A stretch of DNA of 32,381 nt from an uncultured Lachnospiraceae bacterium (GTDB lineage Bacteria; Bacillota; Clostridia; Lachnospirales; Lachnospiraceae), in NCBI GenBank assembly GCA_947564735.1, contig CANOEC010000043.1, forward strand, positions 1-32,381. The letters run 5' to 3'. The stretch's first letter is position 1. Every line of letters starts with the position of its first letter. The position numbers were made by a program, and so were the translations under genes. The notes below the pieces were generated by a model, which was given only the letters and a program-made list of their open reading frames with translations, was not told the DNA's origin and did not search any database. Of the stretch, positions 1 through 26,465 are shown piece after piece.

Positions 1-141
1 CTGAGTACAACTATGTCATGTCTGACATGAAGTTATACTAGGACTGCAAAGGACGCAGTCTGAGTACAACTATGTCATGTCTGACATGAAGTTATACTAG
101 GACTGCAAAGGACGTAGTCTGAGTATAACTATGTTATGTCT
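1..141. repeat. 59-bp tandem repeat, 2.4 copies, with internal hairpins
   Basis: Copies begin at 1, 60 and 119; the third fades after about 141. Copies 1 and 2 are nearly identical. Each full unit holds two inverted repeats. The larger one in copy 1 pairs 4-12 and 16-22 with 24-30 and 31-39, with a 3-nt bulge (ATG, 13-15). The smaller one pairs GACTGC (42-47) with GCAGTC (55-60). In copy 2 the small stem reads GACTGC/GTAGTC, so the change leaves a G-U pair and keeps the stem. The array touches the window edge and may continue upstream. No coding function is apparent. It is not a CRISPR, because there are no unique spacers. Confidence 0.85.
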
Positions 142-804: not shown

Positions 805-2961
805 ATGGCAGAAGTACAAAATCAGGGAAACGAACAACAGGCACAGGACGTCAACCAGCTTTTGAAAGTAAGGCGGGAAAAGCTTTCCGCATTGCAGGAG
901 AGCGGCAAGGATCCTTTTCAGATTACGAAATATGACGTGACACATCACAGTCAGGAAATCAAAGATAATTACGATGCGCTGGAAGGCAAAACAGTCTCCA
1001 TTGCAGGACGTGTGATGTCCAAACGTATTATGGGTAAGGCGTCTTTCTGTAACGTACAGGATTTGCAGGGCGATATGCAGTGTTATGTGGCGCGTGACAG
1101 TGTCGGTGAAGAGCCCTATGCTGATTTCAAAAAATACGACGTGGGTGACATTGTCGGTATTGAGGGTGAAGTGTTTACCACGAAAACCGGTGAAAAATCC
1201 ATTCATGCTGCTAAAGTGACACTATTGTCAAAAAGTCTCCAGATTCTGCCGGAGAAGTATCATGGACTGGTGAATACGGACATTCGTTACCGCCAGAGAT
1301 ATACCGACTTAATTATGAACGAAGACGTGAAAAAGACTTTTGTGCTGCGTTCCAAGATTATCAGTTCCATCAGACGTTATCTGGACGGACAAGGTTTCTT
1401 GGAAGTGGAGACGCCTATGCTCGTGTCCAATGCGGGCGGCGCGGCGGCAAGACCCTTTGAGACGCATTATAATGCGCTGGATGAGGACGTTAAGCTGCGT
1501 ATCTCATTGGAATTATATCTGAAAAGACTGATTGTGGGAGGCATGGAGAGAGTCTATGAAATCGGGCGTGTTTTTAGAAACGAAGGTCTGGATACAAGGC
1601 ATAATCCGGAATTTACCTTGATGGAATTGTATCAGGCATATACGGATTATTATGGGATGATGGATTTGACGGAAAACATGTTCCGCCATGTGGCTAAAGA
1701 AGTGTGCGGCACAACCACTGTTCCTTACGGTGAGGAGATGATTGACCTCGGAAAAACCTTCGAGCGCATGACCATGGTGGAAGCGGTCAAGAAATATGCC
1801 CGTGTCGATTTCGATACAGTGAAGGATACCGAGGAGGCGAAGAAGCTTGCCGATGCGAATGGGATTCACTATGAAGAGAGGCATAAGAAAGGCGATATCT
1901 TGAATCTTTTCTTTGAGGAATTTGTGGAAGAGCATCTGGTGCAGCCGACCTTTATCATGGATCATCCGATAGAGATTTCTCCGTTGACGAAGAAGAAGCC
2001 GGACAAGCCCGAATATGTGGAGCGTTTTGAGCTTTTTATCACCGGACGCGAGATGTGTAACGCGTACTCTGAGTTGAACGACCCGATTGACCAGAGAGAA
2101 CGTTTCAAGGCGCAGGAAGAGGCGCTTGCCGCCGGTGACGAGGAAGCGAACACCACGGACGAGGATTTCATGAATGCGCTGGAAATCGGTATGCCGCCGA
2201 CGGGAGGCATCGGTTACGGAATCGACAGACTGGTTATGTTACTGACGAACTCTCCGGCAATCCGCGATGTTTTGCTTTTCCCGACGATGAAGAGTCTGGA
2301 CAAAGGGCAGGAGAAAAAATCCGCCGACCGTGGAAAAAACGCAAAGAAAGACGCGGAACAGCCTGCGAAACAGAGCAGTATTTCCAGAGAGCAGGCGTTG
2401 GAACTGCTGAAGAAATATAACAAAGAGCTTTTTCATATCCAGCACGCACTGACTGTAGAGGGTGTGATGAGGTGGTATGCGAAAGAATTAGGATATGCGG
2501 CGGAAGAAGAGTTCTGGGGAATTACCGGACTCCTTCATGATATTGATTTCGAGCTTTATCCGGAAGAGCATTGCAAAAAAGCGCCTGAGCTTCTGCGTGA
2601 GGCTGGGGTCGGCGAGGACATGATTTATGCAATTTGCTCGCACGGTTACGGACTTTGCAGTGAGGAAGAGCCGAAGCTTGAGATGGAAAAAGTGCTTTTT
2701 GCATCCGATGAGCTGACGGGACTCATCTGGTCCTGCGCGCTGATGCGTCCATCCAAGAGTACGATGGACATGGAAGTGAAGAGCTTGAAAAAGAAGTTTA
2801 AGGATAAGAAGTTTGCGGCGGGCTGTTCCAGAGAAGTCATTTCTCAGGGCGCGGAAATGCTCGGCTGGGAATTAGACGACCTTTTTGACAAGACGATTCT
2901 GGCAATGAGAAGCTGTGAAGCATCTGTTGCAGAGGCGATGGAGGAGAAGGCGTCAAGTTAG
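805..2961 (+). CDS. lysS: Lysyl-tRNA synthetase (class II) with C-terminal HD-domain extension
   Basis: Charges tRNA-Lys. The first ~500 residues are a standard class II LysRS: an OB-fold anticodon-binding domain (about 60-150), motif 1 around FLEVETPML, motif 2 with FRNEGLDTRHNPEF (about 256-270) and motif 3 with GIGYGIDRLVML (about 467-478). Bacterial LysRS normally stops near residue 500. Here, after a charged linker (about 495-530), another ~190 residues continue in frame and look like an HD-superfamily phosphohydrolase: a His in the FHIQHALTVEG segment, LLHDID near 576, a HGYG segment near 613 and an Asp in ASDELTGL near 634. Start ATG has AGGT about 7 nt upstream. A terminator follows. 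The synthetase call is certain; the HD call rests on motif reading. Confidence 0.96.
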   Translation: MAEVQNQGNEQQAQDVNQLLKVRREKLSALQESGKDPFQITKYDVTHHSQEIKDNYDALEGKTVSIAGRVMSKRIMGKASFCNVQDLQGDMQCYVARDSVGEEPYADFKKYDVGDIVGIEGEVFTTKTGEKSIHAAKVTLLSKSLQILPEKYHGLVNTDIRYRQRYTDLIMNEDVKKTFVLRSKIISSIRRYLDGQGFLEVETPMLVSNAGGAAARPFETHYNALDEDVKLRISLELYLKRLIVGGMERVYEIGRVFRNEGLDTRHNPEFTLMELYQAYTDYYGMMDLTENMFRHVAKEVCGTTTVPYGEEMIDLGKTFERMTMVEAVKKYARVDFDTVKDTEEAKKLADANGIHYEERHKKGDILNLFFEEFVEEHLVQPTFIMDHPIEISPLTKKKPDKPEYVERFELFITGREMCNAYSELNDPIDQRERFKAQEEALAAGDEEANTTDEDFMNALEIGMPPTGGIGYGIDRLVMLLTNSPAIRDVLLFPTMKSLDKGQEKKSADRGKNAKKDAEQPAKQSSISREQALELLKKYNKELFHIQHALTVEGVMRWYAKELGYAAEEEFWGITGLLHDIDFELYPEEHCKKAPELLREAGVGEDMIYAICSHGYGLCSEEEPKLEMEKVLFASDELTGLIWSCALMRPSKSTMDMEVKSLKKKFKDKKFAAGCSREVISQGAEMLGWELDDLFDKTILAMRSCEASVAEAMEEKASS

Positions 2962-3090: not shown

Positions 3091-4218
3091 ATGCCGGAGA
3101 CGAATCATTGGAAACTTGAGCTGGAACAATATATTAGACAGAATGAACCGACGAAAGTCGAAAAGAGCAGAGCATGGGGGACAGCGATTGGTCTGCAGGA
3201 CGTAGATGGGTTAAAGACTTCGGAGTATCTGCTGGAAACAGCAAAAGAACACATTGAGGGAAAGATTGATATTGGTGTTGCACAGGAGAGAATACAAGCC
3301 TATTATGAGGAGCAGGCGAATAGGGAGAATTTCTCATCAGACACAAAGGAAGCAGATATTGTAGCTTCTAGAATTGCGGCGCTTTTAGGAGAGCAGACAT
3401 TTCAGTTTTCACCTGCGGAGTGGCAGACGATTTACAAACGGCTTTTTGAGGGTGTGTTTCACCATGCGGGTGTGTTTAGAACGTATAATATAAGCAAGAA
3501 AGAATGGGTGTTGAAAGGAAATACGGTATTGTATGCTTCGGCAGAAAGTATTAAGCCAACGCTTGCATATGATTTTGATATGGAAAAACAGTTTTCTTAT
3601 GAAGGGCTTTCGGTTGCAGAGGCGATAAAGCATATTTCAAAGTTTACATCGGGTATATGGCAGATCCATCCTTTTTGCGAAGGAAATACAAGGGCAACAG
3701 CGGTATTTATTATTAAATATATGAAAACCTTTGGTTTTCATATCGGCAATGAAGTTTTTGCCGAGCATTCATGGTATTTTAGAAATGCATTGGTGAGAGC
3801 AAATTATAATAATTTTTCCGAAGGGATTACTGCTACAACAGAGTATCTGGAATTATTCTTTGAAAATTTGTTACTAAATAAAGGACATGAATTGAGAAAT
3901 AGATTTCTGCATGTTGATTATAGGAAGGATGTGCAGCAGAAAGATGTTCAAAGTGTCAATCAGAACGGCTCAAAGTGCCAAAATGGCACTTTGAATGACG
4001 CAGTAAATTGCACCTTAGATGAGTTGGCAATTTTACAGCTTATTGCAGCCAATCCGACAATCACACAGAAGGAATTGGCAAATAAAAGTGGGAAGTCAGA
4101 GCGTACCATAAAAAGAAAAACTGTCGAATTACAGGAAAAGGGTTATTTAAAACGTTTGAACGGAAAACGTAACGGACGGTGGGAAATTTATGTCGAACTG
4201 CCGTTTAAAATATTGTGA
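3091..4218 (+). CDS. Fic-family protein with C-terminal winged helix
   Basis: A 375-residue Fic-domain protein; the family mostly transfers AMP from ATP onto hydroxyl side chains of target proteins. The active-site motif HPFCEGNTR is intact at residues 193-201, with the catalytic His, the Asn and the Arg of the consensus. Before it are the flap-like segment YNISKKEWVL and the VLYASAESIKPTL stretch typical of the family. An N-terminal helical piece (about 44-75) resembles the VbhA-type antitoxin helix: E56-G57 are present, but the Ser/Thr four residues before the Glu of the usual inhibitory [ST]xxxE[GN] motif is Lys here. The C-terminus (about 308-370) is a winged helix-turn-helix, suggesting DNA binding or autoregulation. 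An AGGGAG ribosome binding site precedes the ATG. The target is unknown. Confidence 0.9.
   Translation: MPETNHWKLELEQYIRQNEPTKVEKSRAWGTAIGLQDVDGLKTSEYLLETAKEHIEGKIDIGVAQERIQAYYEEQANRENFSSDTKEADIVASRIAALLGEQTFQFSPAEWQTIYKRLFEGVFHHAGVFRTYNISKKEWVLKGNTVLYASAESIKPTLAYDFDMEKQFSYEGLSVAEAIKHISKFTSGIWQIHPFCEGNTRATAVFIIKYMKTFGFHIGNEVFAEHSWYFRNALVRANYNNFSEGITATTEYLELFFENLLLNKGHELRNRFLHVDYRKDVQQKDVQSVNQNGSKCQNGTLNDAVNCTLDELAILQLIAANPTITQKELANKSGKSERTIKRKTVELQEKGYLKRLNGKRNGRWEIYVELPFKIL
3971..3993. repeat. Perfect 10-bp inverted repeat inside fic
   Basis: CAAAGTGCCA (3971-3980), loop AAA, TGGCACTTTG (3984-3993). It lies in the linker between the Fic domain and the winged helix, encoding a low-complexity SKCQNGTLN stretch. 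Because it sits at a domain joint it is not required by the fold. It could be an operator for the protein's own winged helix, an RNA hairpin or a small palindromic insertion. Confidence 0.8.
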
Positions 4219-5035: not shown

Positions 5036-8000
5036 ATGAGCGGCATTCTTTTTTCAGAAATCATGGATTTTTATCCGAAACATAATGCGTCGGTGTATGA
5101 AGACTTAAAGAAGGATTATCAGAATGGAAGCCTCATTCCCTTTGTCGGAGCGGGGCTTTCTGCCTTTTGCGGCTATTCGGGCTGGTCACAGGTATTGAAA
5201 GAGCTTGCAGGATATATTTATGAGTCAGATATTAGGGATAGGACGATTCAAATGATTGATGGCGGAGGGCTTTTGCAGGCGGCTCAGACGATTTATGACA
5301 ATTACCCGCGGATGCTAAGAGAACTTCGGAAAATCATTGATTATAATAAACTTGCAAATTGTGAACCGGGTGCTTGGTATACCTCGGCGGCATATGTTTT
5401 GCCCTATCTGTTTGGGGCGGGTATGGTCATGACGACTAATTTTGATCGTGTATTGGAAGAAGTCTATGATAAGTGCCATGTGAAATTTGGCAAGGTCGTC
5501 TCGCCTTATGAGCCGGATATTCTTGCACAAATCCGGCAGACGTCGCCGCACTGTCTGTTTAAGCTGCATGGTGATATTGGACCGGAGACACATGATATTG
5601 ACAGGCTGGCATTTACACAGAAACAGTATGATATGGTTTATGAAAATAATGGATTACTCCTGCAGGAGTTGCCATTGTGGTTTCAGAATAAGAGACTGTT
5701 ATTCTTGGGGTGCAGCTTGATGCAGGACAAGACAATGGAGGTGCTGCAGCGAGTCACGGAGAAAAATCCGGGATTAGACCACTATGCGATTCTTGCATGT
5801 AAACCGGATGAAATCGGTCAGCGAAGCAGGGAATTGGGAAAAATGGGGATTTCACCAATCTATTACCCGGAAGGCAGATATGAGGCGGTGCGTGTGATAT
5901 TGGAACGGCTTCTGGAAGAAACTGCCTATAGTAAATATGAGGAAATGAAACAGCATGTAGAGAGACATGTGCCTGTCTCCAAGACCAAGCATCGCTTCAT
6001 GTATGATTCGGGTTACATTGGGTTCACCGGAAGAACGTCAGAATTTACGCAACTTATGGATTTCTGTCAAAATCCTAAGCAGATTTTATGGTGGGCAGTG
6101 ACCGGACCGGGCGGGATGGGCAAGAGCAGACTTGTCTATGAGTTTACCGAGGCGTGTAAAAAAGAGGGCTGGGAAATCGTCTGGCTGAATCAGAATATTT
6201 ACCCGAAAATGCTGAACTGGACGCCGCCTGCACAACGATGTATTTTGGTGGCGGATGACGTGCAGTCATATATTCAGGCAATTGGAGAGTGGATTGGTTC
6301 TGTCTCCACGAGAAAGCGCAGTGAGAAGCTGAGGATACTCCTGCTGGAACGTGAAGGAGAGAAGCTGGGTTCTGCCAAATGGGAGGAGATGATGCAGGCG
6401 GATGCGCCCTATGATGATACGATTCCGTCCTTGTGCTATTGTTCTGATTTTTTAAGGCTGACACCTCTGTCAGAAGACGAATTGAAGGCGATTATGACAG
6501 ATTTTGCGTCTGCTTCGGGAAAAACATGGAAGGACGATGGGCTGATGGAGCGTCTCCTAAAAACATTGCAGGAAGTAGATGGCGATTTGCAGCGTCCCTT
6601 ATATGCGCTGGCAATTGTTGATGCATGGTGTGCTGGGGAGAATCCCACCCATTGGGATAAGGAACAGATATTAAATGAATTGACGAATCGCGAATTGAGA
6701 TTCTATTACAATCGATTAAAGAATTTATCTTCTGACAGGATTTCTAAGGAATTGCGTGCGGAGTTTGAAAATCTTTTGGCACGGTCTTGTGTAAGGGGCA
6801 TTTTGCCATTGGATGAGGTTCGTCCGGAAGAGTATCGGAAGCTTCAGGACAGGGCGGATAAGTTAGAGATGGAGTTTCATGAATTACTCCGGGCAATGGG
6901 AGTAGTTCATCGGGTAAAGGATTATATTGGATTAAAGAGTCAAGGGGGAACAGAACTGTATGGAAGGGAAGAGGAATTCAGTGAAGCGGTGGCGTTAGAT
7001 TGCCCGGATTTGATAAAAGAGTATCTCGTTTTGCGACAGGCATTTGAGAAAGGGCGGATGAAGTTACTGCTTCCGGATGGGTGGGTCAATCAGCCATACC
7101 AGCTGCACTTTTTGTATAACGTGCTGTCTGATTATCCGGAAAAACTGCGAGGGAGACATCAGTTTTGGAAAATCATTTTTGATGGAAAACCGAGGTCTGA
7201 TGGTTGCGCGTGGCAGTATAGTGGTCTGTTGCTTGGTGTAATCGTGCACTTGCCAGAATTACAGGAATGTGCAGTAGAGCGATTAGAGGAAGTATCTCAT
7301 CAATTTCAACAGGATGAAGTTACAGAACTGGCATACGCTATGGGGCTGATAAAGCTTATAATAGAACGACCATTGAAGGAGCGCGAAGAGAGTGTAGTAA
7401 AGCTCTCGGCACTGTATGAACGGAACGATACGAACGAAAAAATAGCGGAACTCTATGCGAATGGCTTGTTTTTTCTGGCGGCAGAACAGCCATTGAAGGA
7501 ACGTGAAGAGAGCGTATCAAAACTTGCGGATTTATATGAACAGCATGATATAAATGAAGAGGTAGCAGAAAAATATGCGCAAGGGTTGTTCGGTCTGATA
7601 GCGGAGCAGCCATTGCATGAATGTGAACAGAGTGCATGTAAACTAGAGACTCTGTATGAACGGCATGATGCGAATGAAAAAATAGCGGAATTATATGCAA
7701 TGATCTTATATCACCGGGTATTTGAGAAATCGTTGAAAGATTGTGAAAAGAGTGTATCAAAACTTGCAGAATTATATGAACGGTATGGTACAAATAAAGA
7801 AATCGTGGCAGCCTACGCGAAAGGTTTGCGCAATCTGACAATGAAACAGCCCTTGAAAGAACGTGAAGAGAGTGTATCAAAACTCATGACTTTGTATGAA
7901 CGGAACAATGCAAATGAGGAAATAGCAGCGGTTTACGCGAGAGGGTTAGCCAATCTGTCAGGGCTACAGCCCTCGAAAGAGCGCGAAGAGAGTGTATTGA

Positions 8001-8368
8001 AACTTGTAGATTTATATAACGGGAGCGACAGGAATGAAGAAATGGCGATATCATTTGCGCTGGGGTTAGCTAATAGTGCCGCTGCGCAGGACTCGGAAGA
8101 AAAGGTACGTGAAATTCTGTTGCAATCAAAAGCATTGTTGAATGAGCGACCTCAAAACATAACATTACAATTTGCATATGCAGCGACATGGTTAGGCTTG
8201 ACATTCGTTCAATCCCTAGAATCCCTGCATCAGACGGTGCTGGAGCTACAAGCATTCCTACGGAAACATCCGAAGGCTAATGAGAGGTTTCAGTTTGAAT
8301 TGGCTAACTATCTCGCCAAACATCCCGAACAAAGGGAGCAGTATGCCCCACTCATATTGAAATCTTAG
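5036..8368 (+). CDS. SIR2-like / STAND NTPase / 40-residue-repeat protein, probable anti-phage sensor
   Basis: A 1110-residue three-part protein. Residues ~25-290 are a SIR2-like NAD-binding domain: FVGAGLSA (36-43), TTNFDRVL (133-140, catalytic Asn), LHGDI (177-181, His) and LGCSL (224-228). Residues ~325-700 hold a P-loop NTPase: GPGGMGKS Walker A (357-364) and ILVADD Walker B (403-408), as in STAND proteins. From 779 to about 1018 there are six helical repeats of exactly 40 residues (consensus PLKEREESVSKLxxLYERxxxNEEIAxxYAxGL), then a degenerate tail. Domain order matches the Avs5-like SIR2-STAND class, where the C-terminal repeats sense a phage protein and the SIR2 domain depletes NAD+. 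No helper gene is adjacent. The ATG has AGGTG about 8 nt upstream. Domain calls are strong; the defence role is inferred from architecture. Confidence 0.88.
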   Translation: MSGILFSEIMDFYPKHNASVYEDLKKDYQNGSLIPFVGAGLSAFCGYSGWSQVLKELAGYIYESDIRDRTIQMIDGGGLLQAAQTIYDNYPRMLRELRKIIDYNKLANCEPGAWYTSAAYVLPYLFGAGMVMTTNFDRVLEEVYDKCHVKFGKVVSPYEPDILAQIRQTSPHCLFKLHGDIGPETHDIDRLAFTQKQYDMVYENNGLLLQELPLWFQNKRLLFLGCSLMQDKTMEVLQRVTEKNPGLDHYAILACKPDEIGQRSRELGKMGISPIYYPEGRYEAVRVILERLLEETAYSKYEEMKQHVERHVPVSKTKHRFMYDSGYIGFTGRTSEFTQLMDFCQNPKQILWWAVTGPGGMGKSRLVYEFTEACKKEGWEIVWLNQNIYPKMLNWTPPAQRCILVADDVQSYIQAIGEWIGSVSTRKRSEKLRILLLEREGEKLGSAKWEEMMQADAPYDDTIPSLCYCSDFLRLTPLSEDELKAIMTDFASASGKTWKDDGLMERLLKTLQEVDGDLQRPLYALAIVDAWCAGENPTHWDKEQILNELTNRELRFYYNRLKNLSSDRISKELRAEFENLLARSCVRGILPLDEVRPEEYRKLQDRADKLEMEFHELLRAMGVVHRVKDYIGLKSQGGTELYGREEEFSEAVALDCPDLIKEYLVLRQAFEKGRMKLLLPDGWVNQPYQLHFLYNVLSDYPEKLRGRHQFWKIIFDGKPRSDGCAWQYSGLLLGVIVHLPELQECAVERLEEVSHQFQQDEVTELAYAMGLIKLIIERPLKEREESVVKLSALYERNDTNEKIAELYANGLFFLAAEQPLKEREESVSKLADLYEQHDINEEVAEKYAQGLFGLIAEQPLHECEQSACKLETLYERHDANEKIAELYAMILYHRVFEKSLKDCEKSVSKLAELYERYGTNKEIVAAYAKGLRNLTMKQPLKEREESVSKLMTLYERNNANEEIAAVYARGLANLSGLQPSKEREESVLKLVDLYNGSDRNEEMAISFALGLANSAAAQDSEEKVREILLQSKALLNERPQNITLQFAYAATWLGLTFVQSLESLHQTVLELQAFLRKHPKANERFQFELANYLAKHPEQREQYAPLILKS
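7370..8089 (+). repeat. Six in-frame 120-bp tandem repeats in the SIR2-STAND gene
   Basis: Units begin at 7370, 7490, 7610, 7730, 7850 and 7970, each starting near CCATTGAAGGAG or a variant and coding for 40 residues. The spacing is exact, with no indels across all six. Unit starts and the ESVSKL and LYER segments are most conserved; the unit ends vary most. Confidence 0.9.
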
Positions 8369-11408: not shown

Positions 11409-11470
11409 CGAGTTCGCGAAGCGAAGCTCACAAACGAGCGAAGCTCGCAAACGAGCGAAGCTCGTTTTTT
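11409..11470. repeat. Three stacked short hairpins ending in a T tract, just before tetR
   Basis: GAG-TTCGC-GAA-GCGAA-CTC (11410-11429, one-nt bulge), then CGAGC-GAA-GCTCG twice (11435-11447 and 11452-11464) with a 17-bp period. The last stem extends to AAACGAGC/GCTCGTTT and runs into six T at 11465-11470. All have the same GAA loop. The tetR ribosome binding site begins about 5 nt later. Confidence 0.85.
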
Positions 11471-16137: not shown

Positions 16138-17808
16138 ATGTCATTAATGGGAAGCCTTTGGACGGGCGTATCAGGATTACAAACTTCAAATAATGCGTTG
16201 AATACAACGGCGCATAACATGTCGAATTTAGACACCGTAGGATATACCAGACAGCAGGTTGCGCAATCCACCAGAACGTATACGACGATGGAGAAGAGCA
16301 ACAAGACAAACTGGAAGCAAATAGGTCTTGGTGTCAATTATTCCCTAACAAGACAGGAAAGACATATATTTTTGGACAAAAACTATCGTCGCGAGTCGGG
16401 ACGGAGCGCTTTTTATGATGTCTCAACGAGCGCGATGGAGGAAATAGAGTATATATTGGGCGAGGAGAATTCCGGCGGCTCAATCGAAGGGCATGAGTTT
16501 TCGGTATCGTTATCCAATTTGTGGGTAGCAGTGCAGGAGATGAGCAAAGACCCTACGAGTTCCGTAAACCAGAATTTGTTTGTGACACGTGCATACGAAT
16601 TTGTGACACGTGCGTCAGCAGTGTATAACAGTCTGGCTGAATATCAGGATAATCTGAACAAGTCTGTGTTGAAGGAAGTAGACAATATCAATAAATATGC
16701 AGTGCAGATTGAAGAACTCAACGAGAGGATTGTATCAATCGAGGCGGGTTCGGAACATGCGAATGATTTGCGCGACAAGCGGAATCTTCTTTTGGATAAG
16801 CTGGCACAGTTAGGCAGTATCTCTTACACGGAGGATATCACCGGTTATGTGAGTGTGAGATTTGAAGATGTGGATCTTGTTAAGGGTGGTCTGGTTAATG
16901 AAATGGCAATTTATACAGACCCGAAGAACGGATTTTACACACCGTACTGGACGATGCTGGCAAATTTTGATTATGACAGTGAAGGAAAACGGATTATATC
17001 GGAGGAGGGAATCTCCGGCGCCAAAGTATTTGATTTGACCAGAGAGATATCTTCCGAGTTGAATACGGATATTGGCTCCCTTAAAGCCATGCTGCTTGCC
17101 AGAGGAGACCACAGGGCTACATACAAAGAGCTGAAGAACTTTCCGCCGGACGCTGACCCTACGGATCCGGAACAGGCGGTAGACGGCTGGTATGACCAGC
17201 ATATTTCGCAGTCTATTGTCATGAATATACAGGCGGAGTTCGACCAGCTGATTAATGCCGTGGTAACGAAAATCAATGATATTCTGGCGGAAGAAGCGGA
17301 AAGCGCCGGACCGGCAGAAACTTCGGATTATCTAAGGGACGAAAACGGAGAGCCATACAAGCTTTTCCTTAAGAATGTCGAAGAAGAAGACTGGACAGTG
17401 TCCAATCTTTTAATCAATCAGGATTTGCGCCAGAATCCGGCGCTTCTGAAGTTTCGTAAGGATGAGCATTCGGAAGACTATCCGGCGATGGTAAAAATGA
17501 AAGCGGCGTTTGAGGAGAAGATATATACATTGAATCCCAACGTAGAGACACCGCTCTGTTTTACGGATTATTATAAGAATCTGGTAGCACAGGTGGCAAA
17601 CAGCGGTTCGGTGTTCAGAGGCATTCAGGTTACACAGACACAGGCGACGGATGCACTGCTCAATGCAAGGGAACAGGTAGTTGGCGTTTCTTCGGATGAA
17701 GAACTGACGAATATGATTAGGTTCCAGAATGCATATAATGCATCCAGCAGATACATCAATGTTATCAGCGAGATGTTAGAGCATATTCTGAGTACGCTCG
17801 GCAGATAG
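16138..17808 (+). CDS. flgK: Flagellar hook-associated protein 1 (FlgK), first copy
   Basis: A 556-residue hook-filament junction protein, exported through the flagellar type III apparatus. The N-terminal D0 region (SLWTGVSGLQTSNNALNTTAHNMSNLDTVGYTRQQV) and the C-terminal D0 helix (NMIRFQNAYNASSRYINVISEMLEHIL) are the standard FlgK signatures; the middle (about 200-480) is the variable surface part. It is about 50 residues longer than typical Bacillus FlgK. A second, divergent FlgK follows after 17 bp. GGACGG-type ribosome binding site, 20 bp after flgN. Confidence 0.94.
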   Translation: MSLMGSLWTGVSGLQTSNNALNTTAHNMSNLDTVGYTRQQVAQSTRTYTTMEKSNKTNWKQIGLGVNYSLTRQERHIFLDKNYRRESGRSAFYDVSTSAMEEIEYILGEENSGGSIEGHEFSVSLSNLWVAVQEMSKDPTSSVNQNLFVTRAYEFVTRASAVYNSLAEYQDNLNKSVLKEVDNINKYAVQIEELNERIVSIEAGSEHANDLRDKRNLLLDKLAQLGSISYTEDITGYVSVRFEDVDLVKGGLVNEMAIYTDPKNGFYTPYWTMLANFDYDSEGKRIISEEGISGAKVFDLTREISSELNTDIGSLKAMLLARGDHRATYKELKNFPPDADPTDPEQAVDGWYDQHISQSIVMNIQAEFDQLINAVVTKINDILAEEAESAGPAETSDYLRDENGEPYKLFLKNVEEEDWTVSNLLINQDLRQNPALLKFRKDEHSEDYPAMVKMKAAFEEKIYTLNPNVETPLCFTDYYKNLVAQVANSGSVFRGIQVTQTQATDALLNAREQVVGVSSDEELTNMIRFQNAYNASSRYINVISEMLEHILSTLGR

Positions 17809-17825
17809 GATAGAGAGGTGGGCTT

Positions 17826-19697
17826 ATGGCATCTACATTTTTTGGATTAGAAATTGCAGCATCGGGGTTGAGAGCTTCTAATGCAGCGCTCAACACGACG
17901 GCGAATAATATCAGCAATACAAATACGGAAGGGTACAGCCGTCAGGAAGTAAAGCAGGAAGCCATGAATCCGCTGCGTGTATTCGCGACATATGGCTGTG
18001 CGGGTGCAGGTGTCAATACACTGGCAATCGAGCGTATCAGAGAGCAGTTTTATGATAATAAATTCCGCGATAACGAGACAAAGCTGGGTGAATATGACAC
18101 AAAAGCATATTACTGTAAGATGATTGAGGAATATCTGGAGGATGACAACAAGAGCGGTTTCAAGTCAATCTTTGACCAGTTCGGGCTTGCCTTGCAGGAG
18201 ATTACGAAGAATGCCAGCAGTGAATCTTACAAGAGAGCGTTTATTTCCCAAGCAAAGAGTCTGACGGATTATTTCAATAATTTGTATGGAGATTTACAGA
18301 ATTTACAGGCGGATGTGAACGATGAGATTAAGATTCGTATCGATCATATCAATTCCGTTGCACAGGATATCGCGACGGTCAACAAGCAGATTAACACGAT
18401 TGAGATGTCCGGAACGATAGCCAATGAACTTCGTGATAAGAGAGATGTGCTGATTGACGAGTTGTCTGCAGTTGTGGACGTTAAGATAGAGGAGTCCCCG
18501 ATTTATGACCAGTGGGGCAATGCGACGGGCGCAAACAGATTTATCGTGCGGATTGCCGGCGGGCAGACGCTGGTCGATCAGAATGAGTATAATCAGCTGG
18601 TATGTGTGGCGCGTGAATCGGATGAAAAAGTGAATCAGACGGATATAGACGGCTTATACGATATCCGCTGGACGAACGGGACAGATTTCGGTTTGTACAA
18701 TGCATCGATGCATGGTGAACTGAAAGGGCTGATTGAGATGCGCGACGGCAACAACGGTGAGTATTTTAACGGAAAGGTTTCCGACATCGTTTACAGCGGT
18801 AAGACCAGTGAAGTGACCATTCAGACTTCTGCTTCCTACCTCAACAGCATGAGCAAGTCTAATTTGTCGGATACGGGCGGTATCATCAATATCGGCGACC
18901 AGCTGTTCTATTTTACGGGCTGGACATTCGATGAGAAAACTGCATCCTATACGTTTACAATTGATAATGAGGCGACAAAAGAGGCGGGATTTGGTGATGC
19001 GCTTACCGGAGAACGGAAAGGCAAGACCGCAGCCGTCGGAGATGGAGTGGCTTATCAGGGCGTTCCCTATTATATGTCACAGATGAACGAGTGGGTTCGT
19101 GATTTTGCCAAGAAGGTCAATGAGATTTTTACGGATGGTATGACCGATGATGAGGAAGATGCAGGAATCCTCTTTACCGGTATGATGCCGAAGAACAACG
19201 GTGAGTATTCGGAAGACATGTTGAATGATTCCCTTAAGAACGGTAAGGGTTACTATTATATGACAGCAGGAAATCTGACGGTTGAGAGTACGTTGATGAA
19301 AAACGCTTCGCTGCTCGGTACAAGAGCCAAGGGCGAGAAAATCGGCGATGCGCAGGAGATTGACGGTGTTGAGCAGCACAAACAGGTGCGCAAAGTCATC
19401 TCCATGATGAGCGATAAGAATCAGTTCAGCTTCCGTGGAAGAGATGCGGGCGGTTTTCTGGAGTGTGTACTGTCGGATGCGATGCTGAATGCAAAGAATG
19501 CCAATACATTCTATTCCACGTATTTGAGTCTGGAGACGAATATCGACAACCAGAGAACGTCTATCTCCGGCGTCGATGAAGATGAGGAAGCGGTAAGCCT
19601 TGTGAAATATCAGAATTCTTACACGCTGGCTTCCAAGATGATATCCGTGCTGACAGAAATCTATGACAGATTGATTTTACAGACAGGTGTGTCATAA
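17826..19697 (+). CDS. flgK: Flagellar hook-associated protein 1 (FlgK), second copy
   Basis: A 623-residue FlgK paralogue. Its D0 regions (FFGLEIAASGLRASNAALNTTANNISNTNTEGYSRQEV and SLVKYQNSYTLASKMISVLTEIYDRL) are intact, so this is not a decayed duplicate. The central region differs from the first copy: it is longer and includes a Gly/Asp-rich stretch around residues 300-420. Either both proteins sit in the junction ring, or one acts as a variant cap or junction element. AGAGGTGGG serves as the ribosome binding site. The 3' end is partially duplicated (see the 28-bp repeat). Confidence 0.94.
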   Translation: MASTFFGLEIAASGLRASNAALNTTANNISNTNTEGYSRQEVKQEAMNPLRVFATYGCAGAGVNTLAIERIREQFYDNKFRDNETKLGEYDTKAYYCKMIEEYLEDDNKSGFKSIFDQFGLALQEITKNASSESYKRAFISQAKSLTDYFNNLYGDLQNLQADVNDEIKIRIDHINSVAQDIATVNKQINTIEMSGTIANELRDKRDVLIDELSAVVDVKIEESPIYDQWGNATGANRFIVRIAGGQTLVDQNEYNQLVCVARESDEKVNQTDIDGLYDIRWTNGTDFGLYNASMHGELKGLIEMRDGNNGEYFNGKVSDIVYSGKTSEVTIQTSASYLNSMSKSNLSDTGGIINIGDQLFYFTGWTFDEKTASYTFTIDNEATKEAGFGDALTGERKGKTAAVGDGVAYQGVPYYMSQMNEWVRDFAKKVNEIFTDGMTDDEEDAGILFTGMMPKNNGEYSEDMLNDSLKNGKGYYYMTAGNLTVESTLMKNASLLGTRAKGEKIGDAQEIDGVEQHKQVRKVISMMSDKNQFSFRGRDAGGFLECVLSDAMLNAKNANTFYSTYLSLETNIDNQRTSISGVDEDEEAVSLVKYQNSYTLASKMISVLTEIYDRLILQTGVS

Positions 19698-19726
19698 ATT
19701 GATTTTACAGACAGACATGTCATAAA
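19671..19726 (+). repeat. 28-bp tandem duplication spanning the flgK stop codon
   Basis: 19671-19698 and 19699-19726 match at 25 of 28 positions. The first copy encodes the last residues LILQTGVS plus the stop of the second flgK. The second copy would encode LILQTDMS and another stop, so it is untranslated. Differences are confined to three positions of the GTG/ACA block. Confidence 0.9.
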
Positions 19727-19814
19727 GTATAAAACAAAATTTGCAGGGTATCTTTTTTTAAAAGCGTAAACATAGTATTTTTCATTGACGAAACAGGAAA
19801 GAGGATGATAAGCC

Positions 19815-21395
19815 ATGAGAATGACCAATAAGATTATGCGGAGTAATTCGCTCTACAACATCAATCAGAATAAGATTCTGGAAGACAAACTGACGAATCA
19901 GATGACGAATCAGAGTAAGATTGCCAGACCTTCCGATGACCCGGTAGTGGCTATCAGAGCGCTCCGTTTGAGAAGTAATGTAACCACCATATCACAATAT
20001 TATGATAAGAATGTATCGGACGCAGATTCATGGCTGTCGGTGACGGCGGATGCGCTGAAGACGGTAGACGATGTATTGACAGATTTACAGCGGGAAGCAA
20101 GCAGCGCGGCAAACAAAGATTTGACGGCTGACGATCTTGAGATTATCATGACGCAGATGCAGTCATTGACAAAAGAGTTCTATGCGAGCGGTAATGTGGA
20201 TTATGCAGGACGTTTTGTCTTCTCCGGCTACAGGACGGATACGCCGATTACGTTTACGACGGAAGACATTGCCGAGATGAAGAAACATCCGGTGTCCTAT
20301 GAAATCAAAGAGAATATGGGCTATGCTGATATCAGTACGATTGACTATACGGATTACGATGCACTGTCTGCGGCAAATGATATTGGCGGTGACGGCATCA
20401 AAGGCGACAATACCAGTTACGAGCAGGCTGTTACCAACACGAAGCTGTACCGGATGCGTTTGTCATACGATGGGATAGAGGGTGCACCGAAGGATGCGGC
20501 AGGCACTCCGACAGGTCCGATTCCTTTTGAACTTAAGGTACAACGGAATGCGGCAGGATACCCGACGACTCCCGCAGTTACGGAATATAATGATGCGGAG
20601 GCTGCTTATAAGGCAGTTGCTGACGGAACGGAAAAGGGGATTGCTTATATCCCTTCAACGGGAGAGCTAGTTTTCAGTAAAGATTATTATGAAGCAAATT
20701 ACAAGGAAGGCGATACGTTCCAGCTTACTTATAATAAGTCTGACTGGCAGGAGGGCGACATCAATCCGGCGCATTATTTCCAGTGTGTTGAGACGAAGGA
20801 CATTGGCGACGGCACGATGAAGGATACCAAAAAGACTGCCTACAATGTTACGTCCTCGGATCAGGATATTTTTTACGATGTAGGATTTAATCAGCAGATT
20901 CAGGTAAATACTGTTGCGACGGAAGTGTTTACCCATGATGTCAGAAGAGACATGGATGATTTCCAGCATTGTCTGACGCAGCTTCGCGGTATCGAGACAC
21001 AGATTAGCGATATCGAGAAAAAGAGAGCGCAGTTCCCGGAAGACAGCGATGATTATAAGAACTGGACGAAGAAGCTGGAGGGCGCAAAGAAAGCGCAGAG
21101 TTATATTCGTGAGAACATTCATAATAAGTTTGAGAGTCAGATTACAAAGTATCAGAATTATTTGAATGACAATAATATCGCAATCACGAATAATGCGACG
21201 AGAGGAAGCAGATTGGATTTAATCAGCAGCCGTCTTGAGAACCAGAAGGCTACCTTTAAGGATTTGCAGACGGATAACGAAGGGATTGATGTGACGCAGG
21301 TTGCAGTGGAATTGTCCAGCTCTGAACTGACTTATCAGGCAGCGCTTATGGCGACCGGTAAGATTATGCAGACCAATCTGATGAATTATATTTAA
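19815..21395 (+). CDS. flgL: Flagellar hook-associated protein 3 (FlgL)
   Basis: A 526-residue FlgL, the second hook-filament junction protein. The N-terminal flagellin-like region (MTNKIMRSNSLYNINQNK, then KIARPSDDPVVAIRALRLR) and the C-terminal region (VAVELSSSELTYQAALMATGKIMQTNLMNYI) are diagnostic. It is far longer than Bacillus FlgL (about 300 residues), the extra length being a central insertion of about 200 residues (roughly 150-370) rich in Asp, Thr and Gly, probably a surface-exposed domain. AAAGAGG precedes the ATG. The 117 bp before it contain only the 28-bp repeat and AT-rich sequence. Confidence 0.93.
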   Translation: MRMTNKIMRSNSLYNINQNKILEDKLTNQMTNQSKIARPSDDPVVAIRALRLRSNVTTISQYYDKNVSDADSWLSVTADALKTVDDVLTDLQREASSAANKDLTADDLEIIMTQMQSLTKEFYASGNVDYAGRFVFSGYRTDTPITFTTEDIAEMKKHPVSYEIKENMGYADISTIDYTDYDALSAANDIGGDGIKGDNTSYEQAVTNTKLYRMRLSYDGIEGAPKDAAGTPTGPIPFELKVQRNAAGYPTTPAVTEYNDAEAAYKAVADGTEKGIAYIPSTGELVFSKDYYEANYKEGDTFQLTYNKSDWQEGDINPAHYFQCVETKDIGDGTMKDTKKTAYNVTSSDQDIFYDVGFNQQIQVNTVATEVFTHDVRRDMDDFQHCLTQLRGIETQISDIEKKRAQFPEDSDDYKNWTKKLEGAKKAQSYIRENIHNKFESQITKYQNYLNDNNIAITNNATRGSRLDLISSRLENQKATFKDLQTDNEGIDVTQVAVELSSSELTYQAALMATGKIMQTNLMNYI

Positions 21396-21416
21396 GAAGA
21401 AGGGCGGTTACAGGGT

Positions 21417-21872
21417 ATGCAGATAAAAACGAAGGTTTTTGGTGAGATTATTATAGATGACGATAAAATCATACACTTTCCGAAAGGAATTATCGGCTTC
21501 CCCGAGTTGACGGAGTTTACGTTGATACATGATGAGGAAAAGGGCACAGATACCATTCACTGGTTGCAATCCTTGCAGGAGCCGGCGTTTGCCATGCCGG
21601 TTATGGATCCGCTCATTGTGCGTCCGGATTACAATCCGGAGGCGGATGATGAATTGTTCAATGTTCTTGGAGAAATCAAGCCGGATGAACTTCTGGTTCT
21701 GGTGACGGTGACAGTGCCGAGCGATTTGAAAAAGATGACTGTGAATCTGAAAGGTCCTATTATCATCAATGTATCAGAGAAAAAGGCTTTGCAGGTTATC
21801 GTGGAAGGCGACGAATACCAAGTGAAATATCCAATCTATGATATATTGAATCAGAAGAAAGCAGGTGAGTAA
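21417..21872 (+). CDS. fliW: Flagellar assembly factor FliW
   Basis: A 151-residue FliW. It binds flagellin or CsrA: when flagellin is exported, freed FliW sequesters CsrA and relieves repression of flagellin translation. Typical segments are FGEIIIDDDKIIHFPKGIIGFPE, FTLIHDEE, FAMPVMDPLIVRPDYNPE and the C-terminal LKGPIIINVSEKKALQVI. It begins 21 bp after flgL, and its stop codon is immediately followed by the csrA ATG (TAAATG), implying translational coupling. Confidence 0.96.
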   Translation: MQIKTKVFGEIIIDDDKIIHFPKGIIGFPELTEFTLIHDEEKGTDTIHWLQSLQEPAFAMPVMDPLIVRPDYNPEADDELFNVLGEIKPDELLVLVTVTVPSDLKKMTVNLKGPIIINVSEKKALQVIVEGDEYQVKYPIYDILNQKKAGE

Positions 21873-22091
21873 ATGTTAGCTTTATCCAGAAAAAAGAATG
21901 AAGCGCTGGTAATCAACAATAACGTGGAGATTACAGTACTTGAAATCAAGGGAGAACAGGTAAAGCTAGGCATAAGCGCGCCGAGAGAAGTGCCTGTGTA
22001 TCGCAAGGAAGTGTATGTACAGATACAGGATGCCAATAAGGAAGCTGTGAATGTAGACGGCATGGAAGCGTTGAGAAATCTGTTAGGATAA
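21873..22091 (+). CDS. csrA: Carbon storage regulator CsrA
   Basis: A 72-residue RNA-binding protein of normal length. It forms a domain-swapped dimer that binds GGA motifs in mRNA leaders. The sequence MLALSRKKNEALVINNNVEITVLEI, GEQVKLGISAPREVPVYRKEVY is canonical, with the RNA-binding N-terminal Leu-Ser-Arg and the PREVPVYR segment intact. The start abuts the fliW stop. A likely target, the flagellin leader with ACAAGGATG and the GGAGG ribosome binding site, is at the right end of the window. A strong terminator follows 55 bp later. Confidence 0.97.
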   Translation: MLALSRKKNEALVINNNVEITVLEIKGEQVKLGISAPREVPVYRKEVYVQIQDANKEAVNVDGMEALRNLLG

Positions 22092-22146
22092 ACGCACATT
22101 TACGTGCCATATTAAGCGGCAGGACAGTGAATAAAATACAATAAGA

Positions 22147-22182
22147 GCGGACAAATCTAGAGATGGGTTTGTCCGCCTTTTT
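22147..22182 (+). terminator. Terminator of the flgM-csrA operon
   Basis: GCGGACAAA (22147-22155) pairs with TTTGTCCGC (22168-22176), then CTTTTT. The following gene is on the other strand and converges here; a separate CGGAAG/CTTCCG hairpin at about 22210-22225 may serve it. Confidence 0.92.
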
Positions 22183-22237
22183 CATAGAGTAGGAAATTCT
22201 TTCAAAGAGCGGAAGAATCCTTCCGAGGAGGATGTTT

Positions 22238-23494
22238 TCAAACAGTATTTTCAGATAAAATGCGGATCATCATGGCAATTCGTTGTTCATAGGTGTGGAA
22301 TTTTGCCACCTTTTCATAGCCGCTTATGGCGATTTCAATCCGTTCCTCTTCGTGCGTCAAGTAATATTGCACTTTCTGTTCCAATTCCTCCACAGATTCG
22401 TAAGCCTCCAAGTCCCTGCCAATTTCAAAATAATCGGGGAGCTCCGACTGATAATTGGTGAGCAGGAAGCCGCCGCAGCCGAGTACATCCCAGATGCGCA
22501 GGGAAAGACCTGTTTCAATGGGACGCATGGTCATGTTCAGGTTGATTTTACTTGCGTGGAATGCCTTGGGCATCTCGCGCAGTGTACTGATGCCGTGTCG
22601 GCAGTCAACACCTTTTAACGGCGAGCCGTCGCTGTTTGTGTAGAGCGTTACCCGAAAATGTTCTGCCAGCCGATTGAGCGTTCTTACGCGTTCCACCGCG
22701 GCAAGCTTGATGCCGATATACTGATGCGCCACCAGATAACGGTCAGGATTCGTGTAAGTATCGCTGCCATGGTAGAAATCCGGGTCGGCGCTCGCAATTT
22801 CACGAATGATACGCTCTGTCAGATTGTCGGAGATAAAATTGTACCCGTAGACCTTAAGCTGCGCCTCTATCAGTCCATTTACGAAACCTTGTGTATAGGA
22901 AGATATGACATTTGTGTCATTGTTGCGCTCCGGTTCGTTCAAGCTGGTGTTTGATATGACATTTCTGTCAGTTTGGGCGCGGAGCAAGGCGTCATACCTG
23001 CACTTCTCATTGTACAAAGAACCGACAAAGCATACGTCCGCACCATATTTTGCGTAATCCTCATCCTTCATGTCAAGAATTACTTTTTCCCACCGCTTCA
23101 CATTTGTGGCAAGGGGCAGATAGAAGATGCATTTCGGATTGATAGGATGGAAGAATTCATATTGCGCCTTGTCGAATAAGAAAATCCGGTTCCACTCGTT
23201 TTTTAGAGCATTGGAAAACAATTCCGGCACTGGGGAATCGACGCTCCAGCATACATAGGGAATTTGGAAGTGGTTACACGTATAGGAGATTGCCGGAAAA
23301 AAATTGATGCTGAACACGAAGGCAAAGGAGTGACTCGTAATCCAGCCGGTCAATTTATCAGCGCACTGTCTGGGTGTGACCGACTTGTCAGTCATCTCCA
23401 TTTCTTCGGTGTGAACCGTGATGCCAAAATCGGTAAAGACTTGTATGATGTCGGGTTCGCAGATACTGTTGTAGCGGTAGAATAAGATTTCCAT
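22238..23494 (-). CDS. DUF3880/CgeB-type glycosyltransferase
   Basis: A 418-residue GT-B-type glycosyltransferase of the DUF3880 plus CgeB-like C-terminal family, found next to surface-polymer and flagellar genes. The N-terminal half (MEILFYRYNSICEPDIIQVF, YVCWSVDSPVPELF) binds the acceptor. The C-terminal half has the donor-side signature NMTMRPIETGLSLRIWDVLGCGGFLLTNYQSEL and DLEAYESVEELEQKVQYYL. The open frame extends 22 codons upstream, but the ATG at 23494 is chosen because AAAGGAAC precedes it. It is the last gene of a three-gene minus-strand operon lying between csrA and flaG, pointing to flagellin glycosylation. Confidence 0.87.
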   Translation of the reverse strand: MEILFYRYNSICEPDIIQVFTDFGITVHTEEMEMTDKSVTPRQCADKLTGWITSHSFAFVFSINFFPAISYTCNHFQIPYVCWSVDSPVPELFSNALKNEWNRIFLFDKAQYEFFHPINPKCIFYLPLATNVKRWEKVILDMKDEDYAKYGADVCFVGSLYNEKCRYDALLRAQTDRNVISNTSLNEPERNNDTNVISSYTQGFVNGLIEAQLKVYGYNFISDNLTERIIREIASADPDFYHGSDTYTNPDRYLVAHQYIGIKLAAVERVRTLNRLAEHFRVTLYTNSDGSPLKGVDCRHGISTLREMPKAFHASKINLNMTMRPIETGLSLRIWDVLGCGGFLLTNYQSELPDYFEIGRDLEAYESVEELEQKVQYYLTHEEERIEIAISGYEKVAKFHTYEQRIAMMIRILSENTV

Positions 23495-23559
23495 ATTTTG
23501 AGTTCCTTTTTTATTTGAGGTATGCAAGTCTGCAGCCAGTATATTCTGATAGCAATACA

Positions 23560-24444
23560 CTATAGTGGACGCGAAGCAGGATTAAGGATGCATTCTTTGT
23601 GGCGGTTCAGCAGAGCGGCAAGATAGCTAAAAGCGCTGTTGGACAGAATCATCCCTTTGCACTGGCTCATAAGCTGCAAGTCAATATAATTATTGCCGTT
23701 TACGTTGCCTTCCACATAAGTTACAGTGTGAAAGGTGTTAAAGCCGAGAATAGCTGAATTAGCCCTGCACCAGTCGATATCATCCGAAAAGACAAATAAA
23801 TCCCAGCCGTTGGAATACAGTGTTATAAAGTCCTGCACGATTTGACGGCAGGTATCTACGGGGTAAGACCAGCCGAGAGAAACATAATCTCCGCGGCGGA
23901 TATGGATAGAAAGCGAATGCTGGCTGCGTATCCGTTCCATAAGCGCAATATTTGTGGGCGATACGAGGGGTGGGAAAGCCAGTTCTTTTAGGAAAATATC
24001 TTCATAGCGGTGAAACCACCCGGAATGGACCCAGTAACCGTGATAGTAGGTATCCTTTGGATAATCCTGTATTTCCGGATGATATTCTTTCGGCGGCAGA
24101 AGGAGCACTTCCCCGTCAAAGGGGTTAAATGATTTGTAGTTGTCAAATTCCGCTATCATAACGAACGGTATGCCGATTTCGGTCATGATTTGTGGGATGC
24201 TCTTGCCGTTTTGGCGGTTCTGCAGACAGAAGTCCCAGACATCAGTATCAAGACAATCGCTTAACATCGGCGGATGGAGAGAGAATACACGTTCCAGTTC
24301 ATAGCCATTATGCACGGTGTTTTGTGCAAAGTATGAATCGTCCAGATACATGATGTCTCCGTCGTGGGAAAGAGAATAGTATCTTGTAAACAAATATTGA
24401 AATACCTGATTCGCCAGTCCGCCGTTTAAAAACTGAATTTTCAT
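23560..24444 (-). CDS. GT11 alpha-1,2-fucosyltransferase-like protein
   Basis: A 294-residue protein matching glycosyltransferase family 11, which transfers fucose from GDP-fucose in alpha-1,2 linkage. All recognisable motifs are present: FLNGGLANQVFQYLF (5-19), SIHIRRGDYVSLG with HIRRGDY at 181-187, FVFSDDIDW, and NNYIDLQLMSQCKGMILSNSAFSYLAALL. The open frame extends 56 codons upstream, overlapping the neighbouring gene, but the ATG at 24444 has GAAAGGAC upstream and gives the normal family N-terminus. It lies 40 bp after the fucosyltransferase-like gene and 65 bp before the CgeB-type gene. Genes for GDP-fucose synthesis are not in the window. Confidence 0.9.
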   Translation of the reverse strand: MKIQFLNGGLANQVFQYLFTRYYSLSHDGDIMYLDDSYFAQNTVHNGYELERVFSLHPPMLSDCLDTDVWDFCLQNRQNGKSIPQIMTEIGIPFVMIAEFDNYKSFNPFDGEVLLLPPKEYHPEIQDYPKDTYYHGYWVHSGWFHRYEDIFLKELAFPPLVSPTNIALMERIRSQHSLSIHIRRGDYVSLGWSYPVDTCRQIVQDFITLYSNGWDLFVFSDDIDWCRANSAILGFNTFHTVTYVEGNVNGNNYIDLQLMSQCKGMILSNSAFSYLAALLNRHKECILNPASRPL

Positions 24445-24484
24445 ATCGTGTCCTTTCGGGGAGTTTTGTATCATGTAGCAAATA

Positions 24485-25678
24485 TTAATAAAGGTATGAA
24501 CGCAGCGTGAGAGCATCGTCAATGCCGTAACGTCCCAAATCCCACAGATGTGTCTTTTCAAATCCGTCGGAGAGAAGGAGTGATACAATGGAACCACTGG
24601 TACGTCCGCCAATGAAATACTGGCATTTCGATAATAGAACCAAAGCAGTCAGGTACTCAGTGTTTTTGCGATGGATATCGACTGCATGAGCAAGGTTAAA
24701 TTGATTGATGGTTTCCCCTAAATCAGATGCATAGTATATTTCCTGAGTGGTCAGCAGCCGTTCCTTTAAAACAGAACAAAAAAGCTGTGATATTTCATGA
24801 TCCTCCGTAGCGAGATAACAATAGCTGCAGTTGTATTTTTCCATATACTCTTGAGCTTTTGCAAGTACGATATCGGGCTTAGGCTGAACAGGATGGTTGT
24901 ATGGGGAAAGGTTCGTATAGTCTGTGCCCCTGCATAATACGCCAAGAATTTTTTTGTCGGAATCAAATGGCAGATGGTTTAAACACTGTACAATAGAATG
25001 TTCTGATTGGGATGAAAGAATCAGATATTTATGTGCCATCCTTTGCCAGAACGTCATAAGGTCTGGGTTCATCAGACAATCCATATTATAATTTGGCATA
25101 AAAGAGGGAATGCCGTCCAGAACAGAGACTTCCTCGTCGGTGGCAATATCTGTCAGGGAGATGGAAAAAGGCTGCTTAAAATACAGTTCCCATGCGTTGA
25201 AGGAATATGCCCGGCTTAAGTTAGTAAACATGTTATCTGCATAGGTTGTGTCGATAACGGGAAGATATCCGTTATGAAGGGCAGTGACAATCTGTCCGAG
25301 ATTTGTAATGATATGCGAAGCAAGTCCGGGCGTACTGTCATTGCGTCTGATTAGGCAAATATTTCTGCGGAATTTTATCGTATGTAAAAGAAGAACATCT
25401 AATATCGATAAGAAGCGGTCAATAAATGCACCCTCCTGTGCAGCGGAGTCAAGACCATGCACAAGTTTCGTCAGAGGTGTGATGTCTATGGCGTCTGTAG
25501 AATTGTACTCTAATGAGTCGTACAAAATTTTAAGCCGGCTCAACAAAGTAATATATGGCGAATATGCTTCCCGTCTTTCTGATGTGGTGTGATGGTTTAC
25601 AGACGCTTCTTTCAAAAAGCAGTTCTTCACTTCTTTACCTGCTTGAAATAATTCGTCCGCAATTTCTTTCTGTGTCAT
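24485..25678 (-). CDS. Putative O-fucosyltransferase-like (GT23/GT65-type fold) protein
   Basis: A 397-residue protein. The N-terminal ~100 residues are helical and unrecognised. From about 105 on it looks like the NodZ/alpha-1,6-FucT/protein O-fucosyltransferase superfamily: ASHIITNLGQIVTALHNGYLPVIDTTY, then LGVLCRGTDY (245-254, equivalent to the conserved Arg motif), CYLATEDHEI (287-296) and FIGGRTSGSIVSLLL. It is the first gene of the minus-strand operon, with a clear promoter, and is followed by a GT11 fucosyltransferase. A fucose transfer role is therefore plausible, but the family call is from motif shape only, and it could use another sugar. Confidence 0.65.
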   Translation of the reverse strand: MTQKEIADELFQAGKEVKNCFLKEASVNHHTTSERREAYSPYITLLSRLKILYDSLEYNSTDAIDITPLTKLVHGLDSAAQEGAFIDRFLSILDVLLLHTIKFRRNICLIRRNDSTPGLASHIITNLGQIVTALHNGYLPVIDTTYADNMFTNLSRAYSFNAWELYFKQPFSISLTDIATDEEVSVLDGIPSFMPNYNMDCLMNPDLMTFWQRMAHKYLILSSQSEHSIVQCLNHLPFDSDKKILGVLCRGTDYTNLSPYNHPVQPKPDIVLAKAQEYMEKYNCSYCYLATEDHEISQLFCSVLKERLLTTQEIYYASDLGETINQFNLAHAVDIHRKNTEYLTALVLLSKCQYFIGGRTSGSIVSLLLSDGFEKTHLWDLGRYGIDDALTLRSYLY

Positions 25679-25731
25679 ATCAGATATCCTTTATGCTCAT
25701 AATATTTATGGTTTGTGGTCAATATGGATAT

Positions 25732-25760: not shown

Positions 25761-25851
25761 CGTAAAAAAGGAAATTCACAGAATTCGGTGGGCAGACAAA
25801 GTCAATATACGTCAATCATCATAAAACGGTCATAAATTTGTTCCCAATCAC

Positions 25852-26445: not shown

Positions 26446-26465
26446 GTGGTTAGGAGGTAATTAGA

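What the first reader, a model, noticed from the sequence alone, without database searches (positions are those of the whole stretch)
5036..8368. SIR2-STAND protein with six exact 40-residue repeats: candidate single-gene anti-phage sensor
The sequence shows an intact SIR2-type NAD site (GAGLSA, TTNFD, LHGDI), a P-loop (GPGGMGKS) and a C-terminal array of six repeats with no indels. SIR2-STAND proteins of the Avs5-like class are established anti-phage NADases whose C-terminal repeats recognise phage proteins. The repeats here have a 40-residue period rather than the 34 of classic TPRs, and I know no described target for this variant. The conserved framework with variable unit ends suggests a recently expanded recognition surface.
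Basis: partly seen in the sequence, partly recalled or inferred. Interest (0 to 1): 0.85.

Follow-up and report, generated by a model that had tools for sequence, protein, structure and literature searches.

The report
Bacterial immune receptor with swappable repeats
This is a single gut-bacterial protein that probably destroys the cell's NAD when an invader such as a phage is sensed, and its sensing end is a stack of 40-residue helical repeats that appears to be rebuilt or exchanged far faster than the rest of the protein.

The parts
5036..8368 (+). SIR2-STAND-repeat protein, 1110 aa, whole ORF
5036..5935 (+). SIR2_2 NADase-type domain (residues 1-300)
5438..5440 (+). N135, predicted catalytic Asn
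   Evidence: N in 19 of 19 SIR2 proteins aligned; aligned with TTNYD of ThsA
5567..5569 (+). H178, predicted catalytic His
   Evidence: H in 19 of 19 aligned; aligned with MHGDV of ThsA
6023..6955 (+). STAND-type NTPase, lid and winged-helix-like region (residues 330-640)
   Evidence: nSTAND_NTPase5 7.7e-8, 32.7 bits, just under Pfam's 34; limits read from the model
6104..6127 (+). P-loop GPGGMGKS (residues 357-364)
   Evidence: K363 invariant in A1 (3 rows) and A2 (8 rows)
7007..7342 (+). helical stretch and degenerate hairpins before the array (residues 658-769)
   Evidence: identity to L087 is 53.5% over 641-769
7343..8062 (+). array of six 40-residue TPR-like units (residues 770-1009)
8063..8365 (+). 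degenerate hairpins and C-terminal cap (residues 1010-1110)
3091..4218 (+). neighbour: Fic-winged-helix protein, defence candidate PDC-S72 (not claimed as a partner)
   Evidence: 2.7e-125

Best explanation
A single-protein, NLR-like anti-invader receptor of the SIR2-STAND kind. At rest the C-terminal TPR-like solenoid and the nSTAND5-like NTPase hold the N-terminal SIR2 domain inactive. A ligand, most likely a phage protein, binds the repeat array; the NTPase then drives oligomerisation, and the clustered SIR2 domains destroy NAD+, stopping the infection by growth arrest or death. Specificity sits in the C-terminal module (about residues 640-1110), which turns over as a cassette: units are lost, gained or homogenised within a protein, and the module seems to be exchanged between lineages while effector and NTPase stay. 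Shown here: domains, predicted fold, kept catalytic residues, site, distribution, repeat statistics, C-terminal divergence. Inferred: NADase activity, phage ligand, oligomerisation, recombination as the cause.
Against: No activity, ligand or phage is tested. No match in 50,697 phage records or to A1 in viral contigs, so nothing ties it to a given phage. Variability at TPR ligand positions is raised in this array (P 0.007) but weak when five arrays are pooled (P 0.06; L093 P 0.87), and 2 of 39 shifted registers fit the pattern better. The own-protein rule is uneven: 6 of 6 units here and 9 of 9 in L089, but 2 of 5 in L087 and 0 of 3 in L088. Faster evolution or relaxed constraint could also lower identity, though not easily at silent sites; silent sites are near saturation and depend on alignment. 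L087's cap is only slightly nearer to an orphan cap of another species (62.4%) than to this one (57.4%), a tie at silent sites (0.68 against 0.70). G+C of the gene equals that of the window.
Confidence: 0.72

Rival explanations
1. It is an ordinary Avs5: same family, same NTPase, same kind of target.
Against: NCBIfam Avs5 23 bits against cut-off 1000; PADLOC Avs5 only 1.4e-6 on residues 169-233, weaker than LmuA and ThsA; NTPase nearest to nSTAND_NTPase5, no nSTAND3 match.
Confidence: 0.08
2. The array is a scaffold for oligomerisation, not a ligand sensor; its divergence is drift and unequal crossing-over under weak constraint.
For: Unit number varies widely among relatives (about 2 to 10 full units); structural positions are kept (P 0.0006) while the ligand-position signal is weak when pooled (P 0.06).
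Against: The non-repeated flanks and cap diverge too, silent sites included; C-terminal repeats of antiviral STAND proteins bind phage proteins according to PMC10907252 (passages), and PMC12931631 suggests the same for Avs5 (passages).
Confidence: 0.2
3. An NAD-consuming receptor of another kind of non-self: plasmids, conjugation, rival bacteria, or host stress.
For: No phage-borne relative found; relatives lie beside genes that look, by eye, like tyrosine recombinases (L092) and transposase or replication genes (L090, L093); fungal proteins with such arrays serve allorecognition (PMC4986451, passages).
Against: Defence genes at the same place in related species; but these act on plasmids too, so this is not decisive.
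Confidence: 0.18

Closest known systems
Avs5 (AVAST type 5; SIR2-nSTAND3-repeats; PDB 9nc9, 9jap)
   Same: Order of parts, SIR2_2 effector, variable C-terminal helical repeats, single gene
   Different: NTPase nSTAND5-like; far below the Avs5 cut-off; regular 40-residue units
DSR2 (SIR2 plus C-terminal helical part, recognises phage tail tube; PMC11087589, abstract in a listing)
   Different: This protein has a P-loop NTPase between effector and sensor and a regular tandem array; that DSR2 lacks such an NTPase is recalled
ThsA and KomC
   Different: ThsA binds gcADPR (title of 8bto; that this is its trigger is recalled); here an intramolecular STAND sensor is expected
Fungal NLRs with highly conserved WD/ANK/TPR repeats (PMC4986451, passages)
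   Same: Swappable effectors, NTPase, tandem repeats more alike within than between proteins, variable number
   Different: Bacterial; units less alike here (52%) than the 85% cited there; diversifying selection not shown here
Streptococcus plasmid DUF2971 protein (NZ_CP020429.2, L095)
   Same: Same repeat class, period 41
   Different: No SIR2 or NTPase match; DUF2971 at the C-terminus

Membership tests
SIR2_2 domain proteins | Pfam PF13289 above cut-off | tested here: met
   74.6 bits against 24.5
SIR2 NADases | catalytic Asn and His | tested here: met
   N135 and H178 in 19 of 19 proteins aligned; that these are the catalytic pair is recalled from ThsA and DSR2
SIR2 NADases | NAD+ hydrolysis | not testable with these tools
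   bench assay needed
nSTAND_NTPase5 (PF25199) | score above gathering cut-off | tested here: not met
   32.7 bits against 34, E 7.7e-8; relatives L022 31.4, L096 29.5, L092 25; L028, L030 and L075 no match at E 0.01: related, not a formal member
Avs5 | NCBIfam equivalog score | tested here: not met
   23 bits against 1000
Avs5 | nSTAND3 NTPase | tested here: not met
   no PF20720 match at E 0.1; PF25199 and AAA_16 instead
Avs5 | overall fold | tested here: inconclusive
   top Foldseek match, but TM 0.18 to 0.25 and rmsd 34 over the whole chain
TPR proteins | tandem two-helix units of a TPR-like solenoid | tested here: met
TPR proteins | 34-residue period and a Pfam TPR match in this protein | tested here: not met
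   period 40; only TPR_Slam, below cut-off
DSR2 | SIR2 followed by helical repeats without a P-loop NTPase (recalled) | tested here: not met
   P-loop at 357-364
Anti-phage defence system | protection in plaque assay | not testable with these tools
   bench assay needed

The most novel reading that the evidence does not exclude
A period-40 TPR-like sensor cassette circulates in Bacillota: it is joined to SIR2, to membrane segments, to DUF2971 and to uncharacterised N-termini, also persists as orphan arrays, and is exchanged between receptors by recombination, so that one bacterial NLR scaffold renews its recognition end the way fungal NLRs do.
Probability: 0.4. Interest if true: 0.72.

Novelty: new variant of a known kind. 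Interest (0 to 1): 0.52.

Why it matters
How bacterial immune receptors keep up with phages without adaptive machinery is an open question. Here is a small, well-bounded family in which effector and NTPase change slowly while the sensor end is replaced, with a natural pair (this protein and L087: 81% identical in the first 630 residues, different arrays) that would let specificity be tested directly.

Tried and rejected
Recent tandem expansion of this array: rejected by silent sites; it does fit relative L092 (pS 0.30) and the orphan G613 units (83-85% alike by two counts). A diversity-generating retroelement: not searched for; none of the ten right-hand window proteins scanned matched a reverse transcriptase at E 1e-5. 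A conserved partner gene: Fic and AIM24 recur in L087 and, by eye, in several genus loci, but were not seen beside the more distant relatives. Relatives by patterns from the single protein: none; with alignment A1 eight loci. Viral contigs: none. Phage records: none. Ligand-position test: positive in this array, weak when pooled, and not unique to the TPR register. A within-genome donor for the array: none found (one match). The VIA list for the sensor model mixes TPR and ARM solenoids at tied Z (15.9-17.5), so it does not decide between them; the TPR_6 and TPR_14 scores of L022 are what favour TPR.

Papers seen: PMC12931631, PMC7159879, PMC4986451, PMC13092281, PMC10907252 as passages; PMC11087589 and the others as listings only. 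No description of this SIR2 / nSTAND5 / period-40 combination was found in eight searches of the open-licence library, which lacks most subscription journals and bioRxiv.

Full report
What is there. The ORF at 5036-8368 is intact and codes for 1110 residues. Pfam finds SIR2_2 at 130-275 (1.1e-20) and nSTAND_NTPase5 at 344-442 (7.7e-8, just under the curated cut-off). PADLOC gives LmuA 1e-14 and ThsA 1.5e-14 on the SIR2 part, Avs5 only 1.4e-6; NCBIfam Avs5 scores 23 bits against a cut-off of 1000. The AlphaFold2 model (8-row alignment, pLDDT 79.7, pTM 0.48, so domain orientation is not to be trusted) shows a SIR2-like alpha/beta domain (1-300), a P-loop domain, a winged-helix-like region and continuous helical hairpins from about 658 to 1095. 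Modelled alone, residues 721-1110 reach pLDDT 92.9 with 19 helices.

Repeats. Lag-40 identity is 41.7% against 10.6% for the next lag. Six units, 770-1009, are 30-65% identical to each other. The best lag is 40 in L087, L088, L089, L091, L092, L093, G613, G432 and, faintly (14%), G510; 39 with 40 close behind in L090; 41 in the G007 protein and the Streptococcus DUF2971 protein; 42 in a Rhodobacteraceae protein; 40 in G725 and 41 in G773. Full units found by an iterated profile: 6 here, 5-6 in L087, about 3 in L088, 9-10 in L089, 6 in L090, about 2 in L091, 10 in L092, 9 in L093, 8-9 in G725. The profile did not find the Rhodobacteraceae units, so their kinship rests on topology and period. 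Structural TPR positions are the less variable ones (P 0.0006) and ligand-binding TPR positions are more variable in this array (P 0.007), but over five arrays only P 0.06 (L087 0.11, L089 0.24, L092 0.04, L093 0.87); of 40 circular shifts of the pattern the TPR register ranks third, and the mapping was not blind. This is weak support for a ligand surface.

Modularity. The same repeat class occurs with other partners: a protein with N-terminal hydrophobic segments (by eye), a P-loop domain related to this one and repeats in G007 (L028, cut by the contig end); DUF2971 after about 20 units on a Streptococcus plasmid; and N-termini without a Pfam match (L096) or not scanned (L120). Conversely the SIR2 domain occurs with other NTPases and ordinary TPRs (L023 by Pfam; L079 and L121 by eye), with a SEC-C end (L030), and split from its NTPase in G176 (L027, by eye).

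Sensor turnover. Against L087 (= genome G311, same site), residues 1-630 are 80.6% identical, 641-769 53.5% and the cap 57.4%; against L088 the same parts are 61.3, 48.0 and 47.5%. Silent differences are 0.484 (395 sites) in 1-630 and 0.664 (110 sites) in the array's flanks, z 3.35; replacement differences 0.10 and 0.27. There is no clear unit-by-unit correspondence: the best in-order pairing is 46%, and 1777 of 20000 random pairings do as well (P 0.09). Over seven proteins 40 of 49 units have their nearest neighbour in the same protein; shuffled labels give 7.2 on average and at most 19 in 5000 (G613 and G432 were left out of this count). By protein: window 6 of 6, L087 2 of 5, L089 9 of 9, L088 0 of 3, L090 4 of 6, L092 9 of 10, L093 10 of 10. 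Shared ancestry of distant proteins alone would produce part of this, so the window-L087 pair is the telling one. Within-array silent divergence here (0.62) exceeds the core divergence from L087 (0.49), so these copies are older than that split or came from elsewhere; L092 (0.30) is a real recent expansion. I read this as replacement or homogenisation of a C-terminal cassette; faster evolution of that end is the main alternative. G343 carries an orphan cassette, about four units plus cap without SIR2 or NTPase, on the same contig, second gene downstream of M18; it opens within a unit and is either a remnant or a reservoir. L087's cap is a little nearer to it (62.4%) than to the window's (57.4%), a tie at silent sites.

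Site and distribution. The gene lies between AIM24 and SpoU/M18, downstream of greA and lysS. In the 61 genus genomes searched for lysS and AIM24, 11 besides the own genome have both on one contig; I fetched ten of them (one is L087's own, G686 was not fetched). Only in three of these (G311, G343, G341) is M18 on that contig too, so elsewhere only the left border is known. What follows AIM24 varies. Proteins chosen by eye from L087 and four others were scanned with PADLOC, and each of the five loci had matches to defence genes; one of the ten proteins had none. In G341 the OLD-type gene lies between lysS and AIM24. L101 and L102 hold chemotaxis-like genes instead; L100, L103 and L106 were not scanned. 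Close relatives of the SpoU neighbour (67-71% identical) also occur in only 3 of 50 other genus genomes. A match to the protein was found in 3 of 78 genus genomes, one of them only the orphan, 17 of 299 in the family, 23 of 392 in the order and, with the A1 profile, 14 of 291 in the class, G725 alone besides the own genome covering most of it. The own genome is counted each time and draws overlap; 11 of 16 other family and 15 of 22 other order genomes match by SIR2 alone. L091 lies beside LmuA/Avs1a-like genes and L092 beside genes that look like tyrosine recombinases (by eye; no PADLOC match for the one scanned).

Mechanism. From the kinds of proteins read about (Avs5, PMC12931631; fungal NLRs, PMC4986451; both as passages), the likely course is ligand binding by the array, NTP-dependent assembly, NAD+ loss. 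None of these steps is shown here.

Verdict. It is a SIR2-STAND receptor outside Avs5, at a place where relatives keep other defence genes; its period-40 array is a family trait and seems the fast-changing, exchangeable end of the molecule.

Noticed in passing
window 805-2961: Lysyl-tRNA synthetase of 718 aa with a C-terminal HD-like domain (weak Pfam HD 545-635). Of 49 genus genomes matched, 23 (own included) align to nearly the full length and 26 only to about residues 490-520, so the HD part comes and goes.
   Followed up: no
L125 5088-5870 (-), genome G343 C50: Orphan array of about four 40-residue units plus cap, without SIR2 or NTPase, overlapping the end of the gene after M18.
   Followed up: partly
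L095 4978-8661: Streptococcus plasmid protein with about 20 units of 41 residues (60% identity at lag 41) followed by DUF2971; likely another receptor with a repeat array.
   Followed up: partly
L096 2134-5871: Rhodobacteraceae plasmid protein with nSTAND5-like NTPase and highly alike 42-residue repeats (73% at lag 42).
   Followed up: partly
L105 (G307): Dnd/Pbe phosphorothioation genes (DndB, DndC, PbeA, PbeC) next to AIM24, downstream of lysS.
   Followed up: partly
window 16138-32062: Flagellar block: two FlgK-like genes, flagellin, FliD, glycosyltransferases and a radical SAM gene, perhaps flagellin glycosylation.
   Followed up: no
window 1-141: 59-bp tandem repeat, 2.4 copies, at the contig end; the window is the whole contig.
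   Followed up: no
window 11420-11464: 17-bp tandem repeat AGCGAAGCTCGCAAACG, 2.6 copies, between genes.
   Followed up: no
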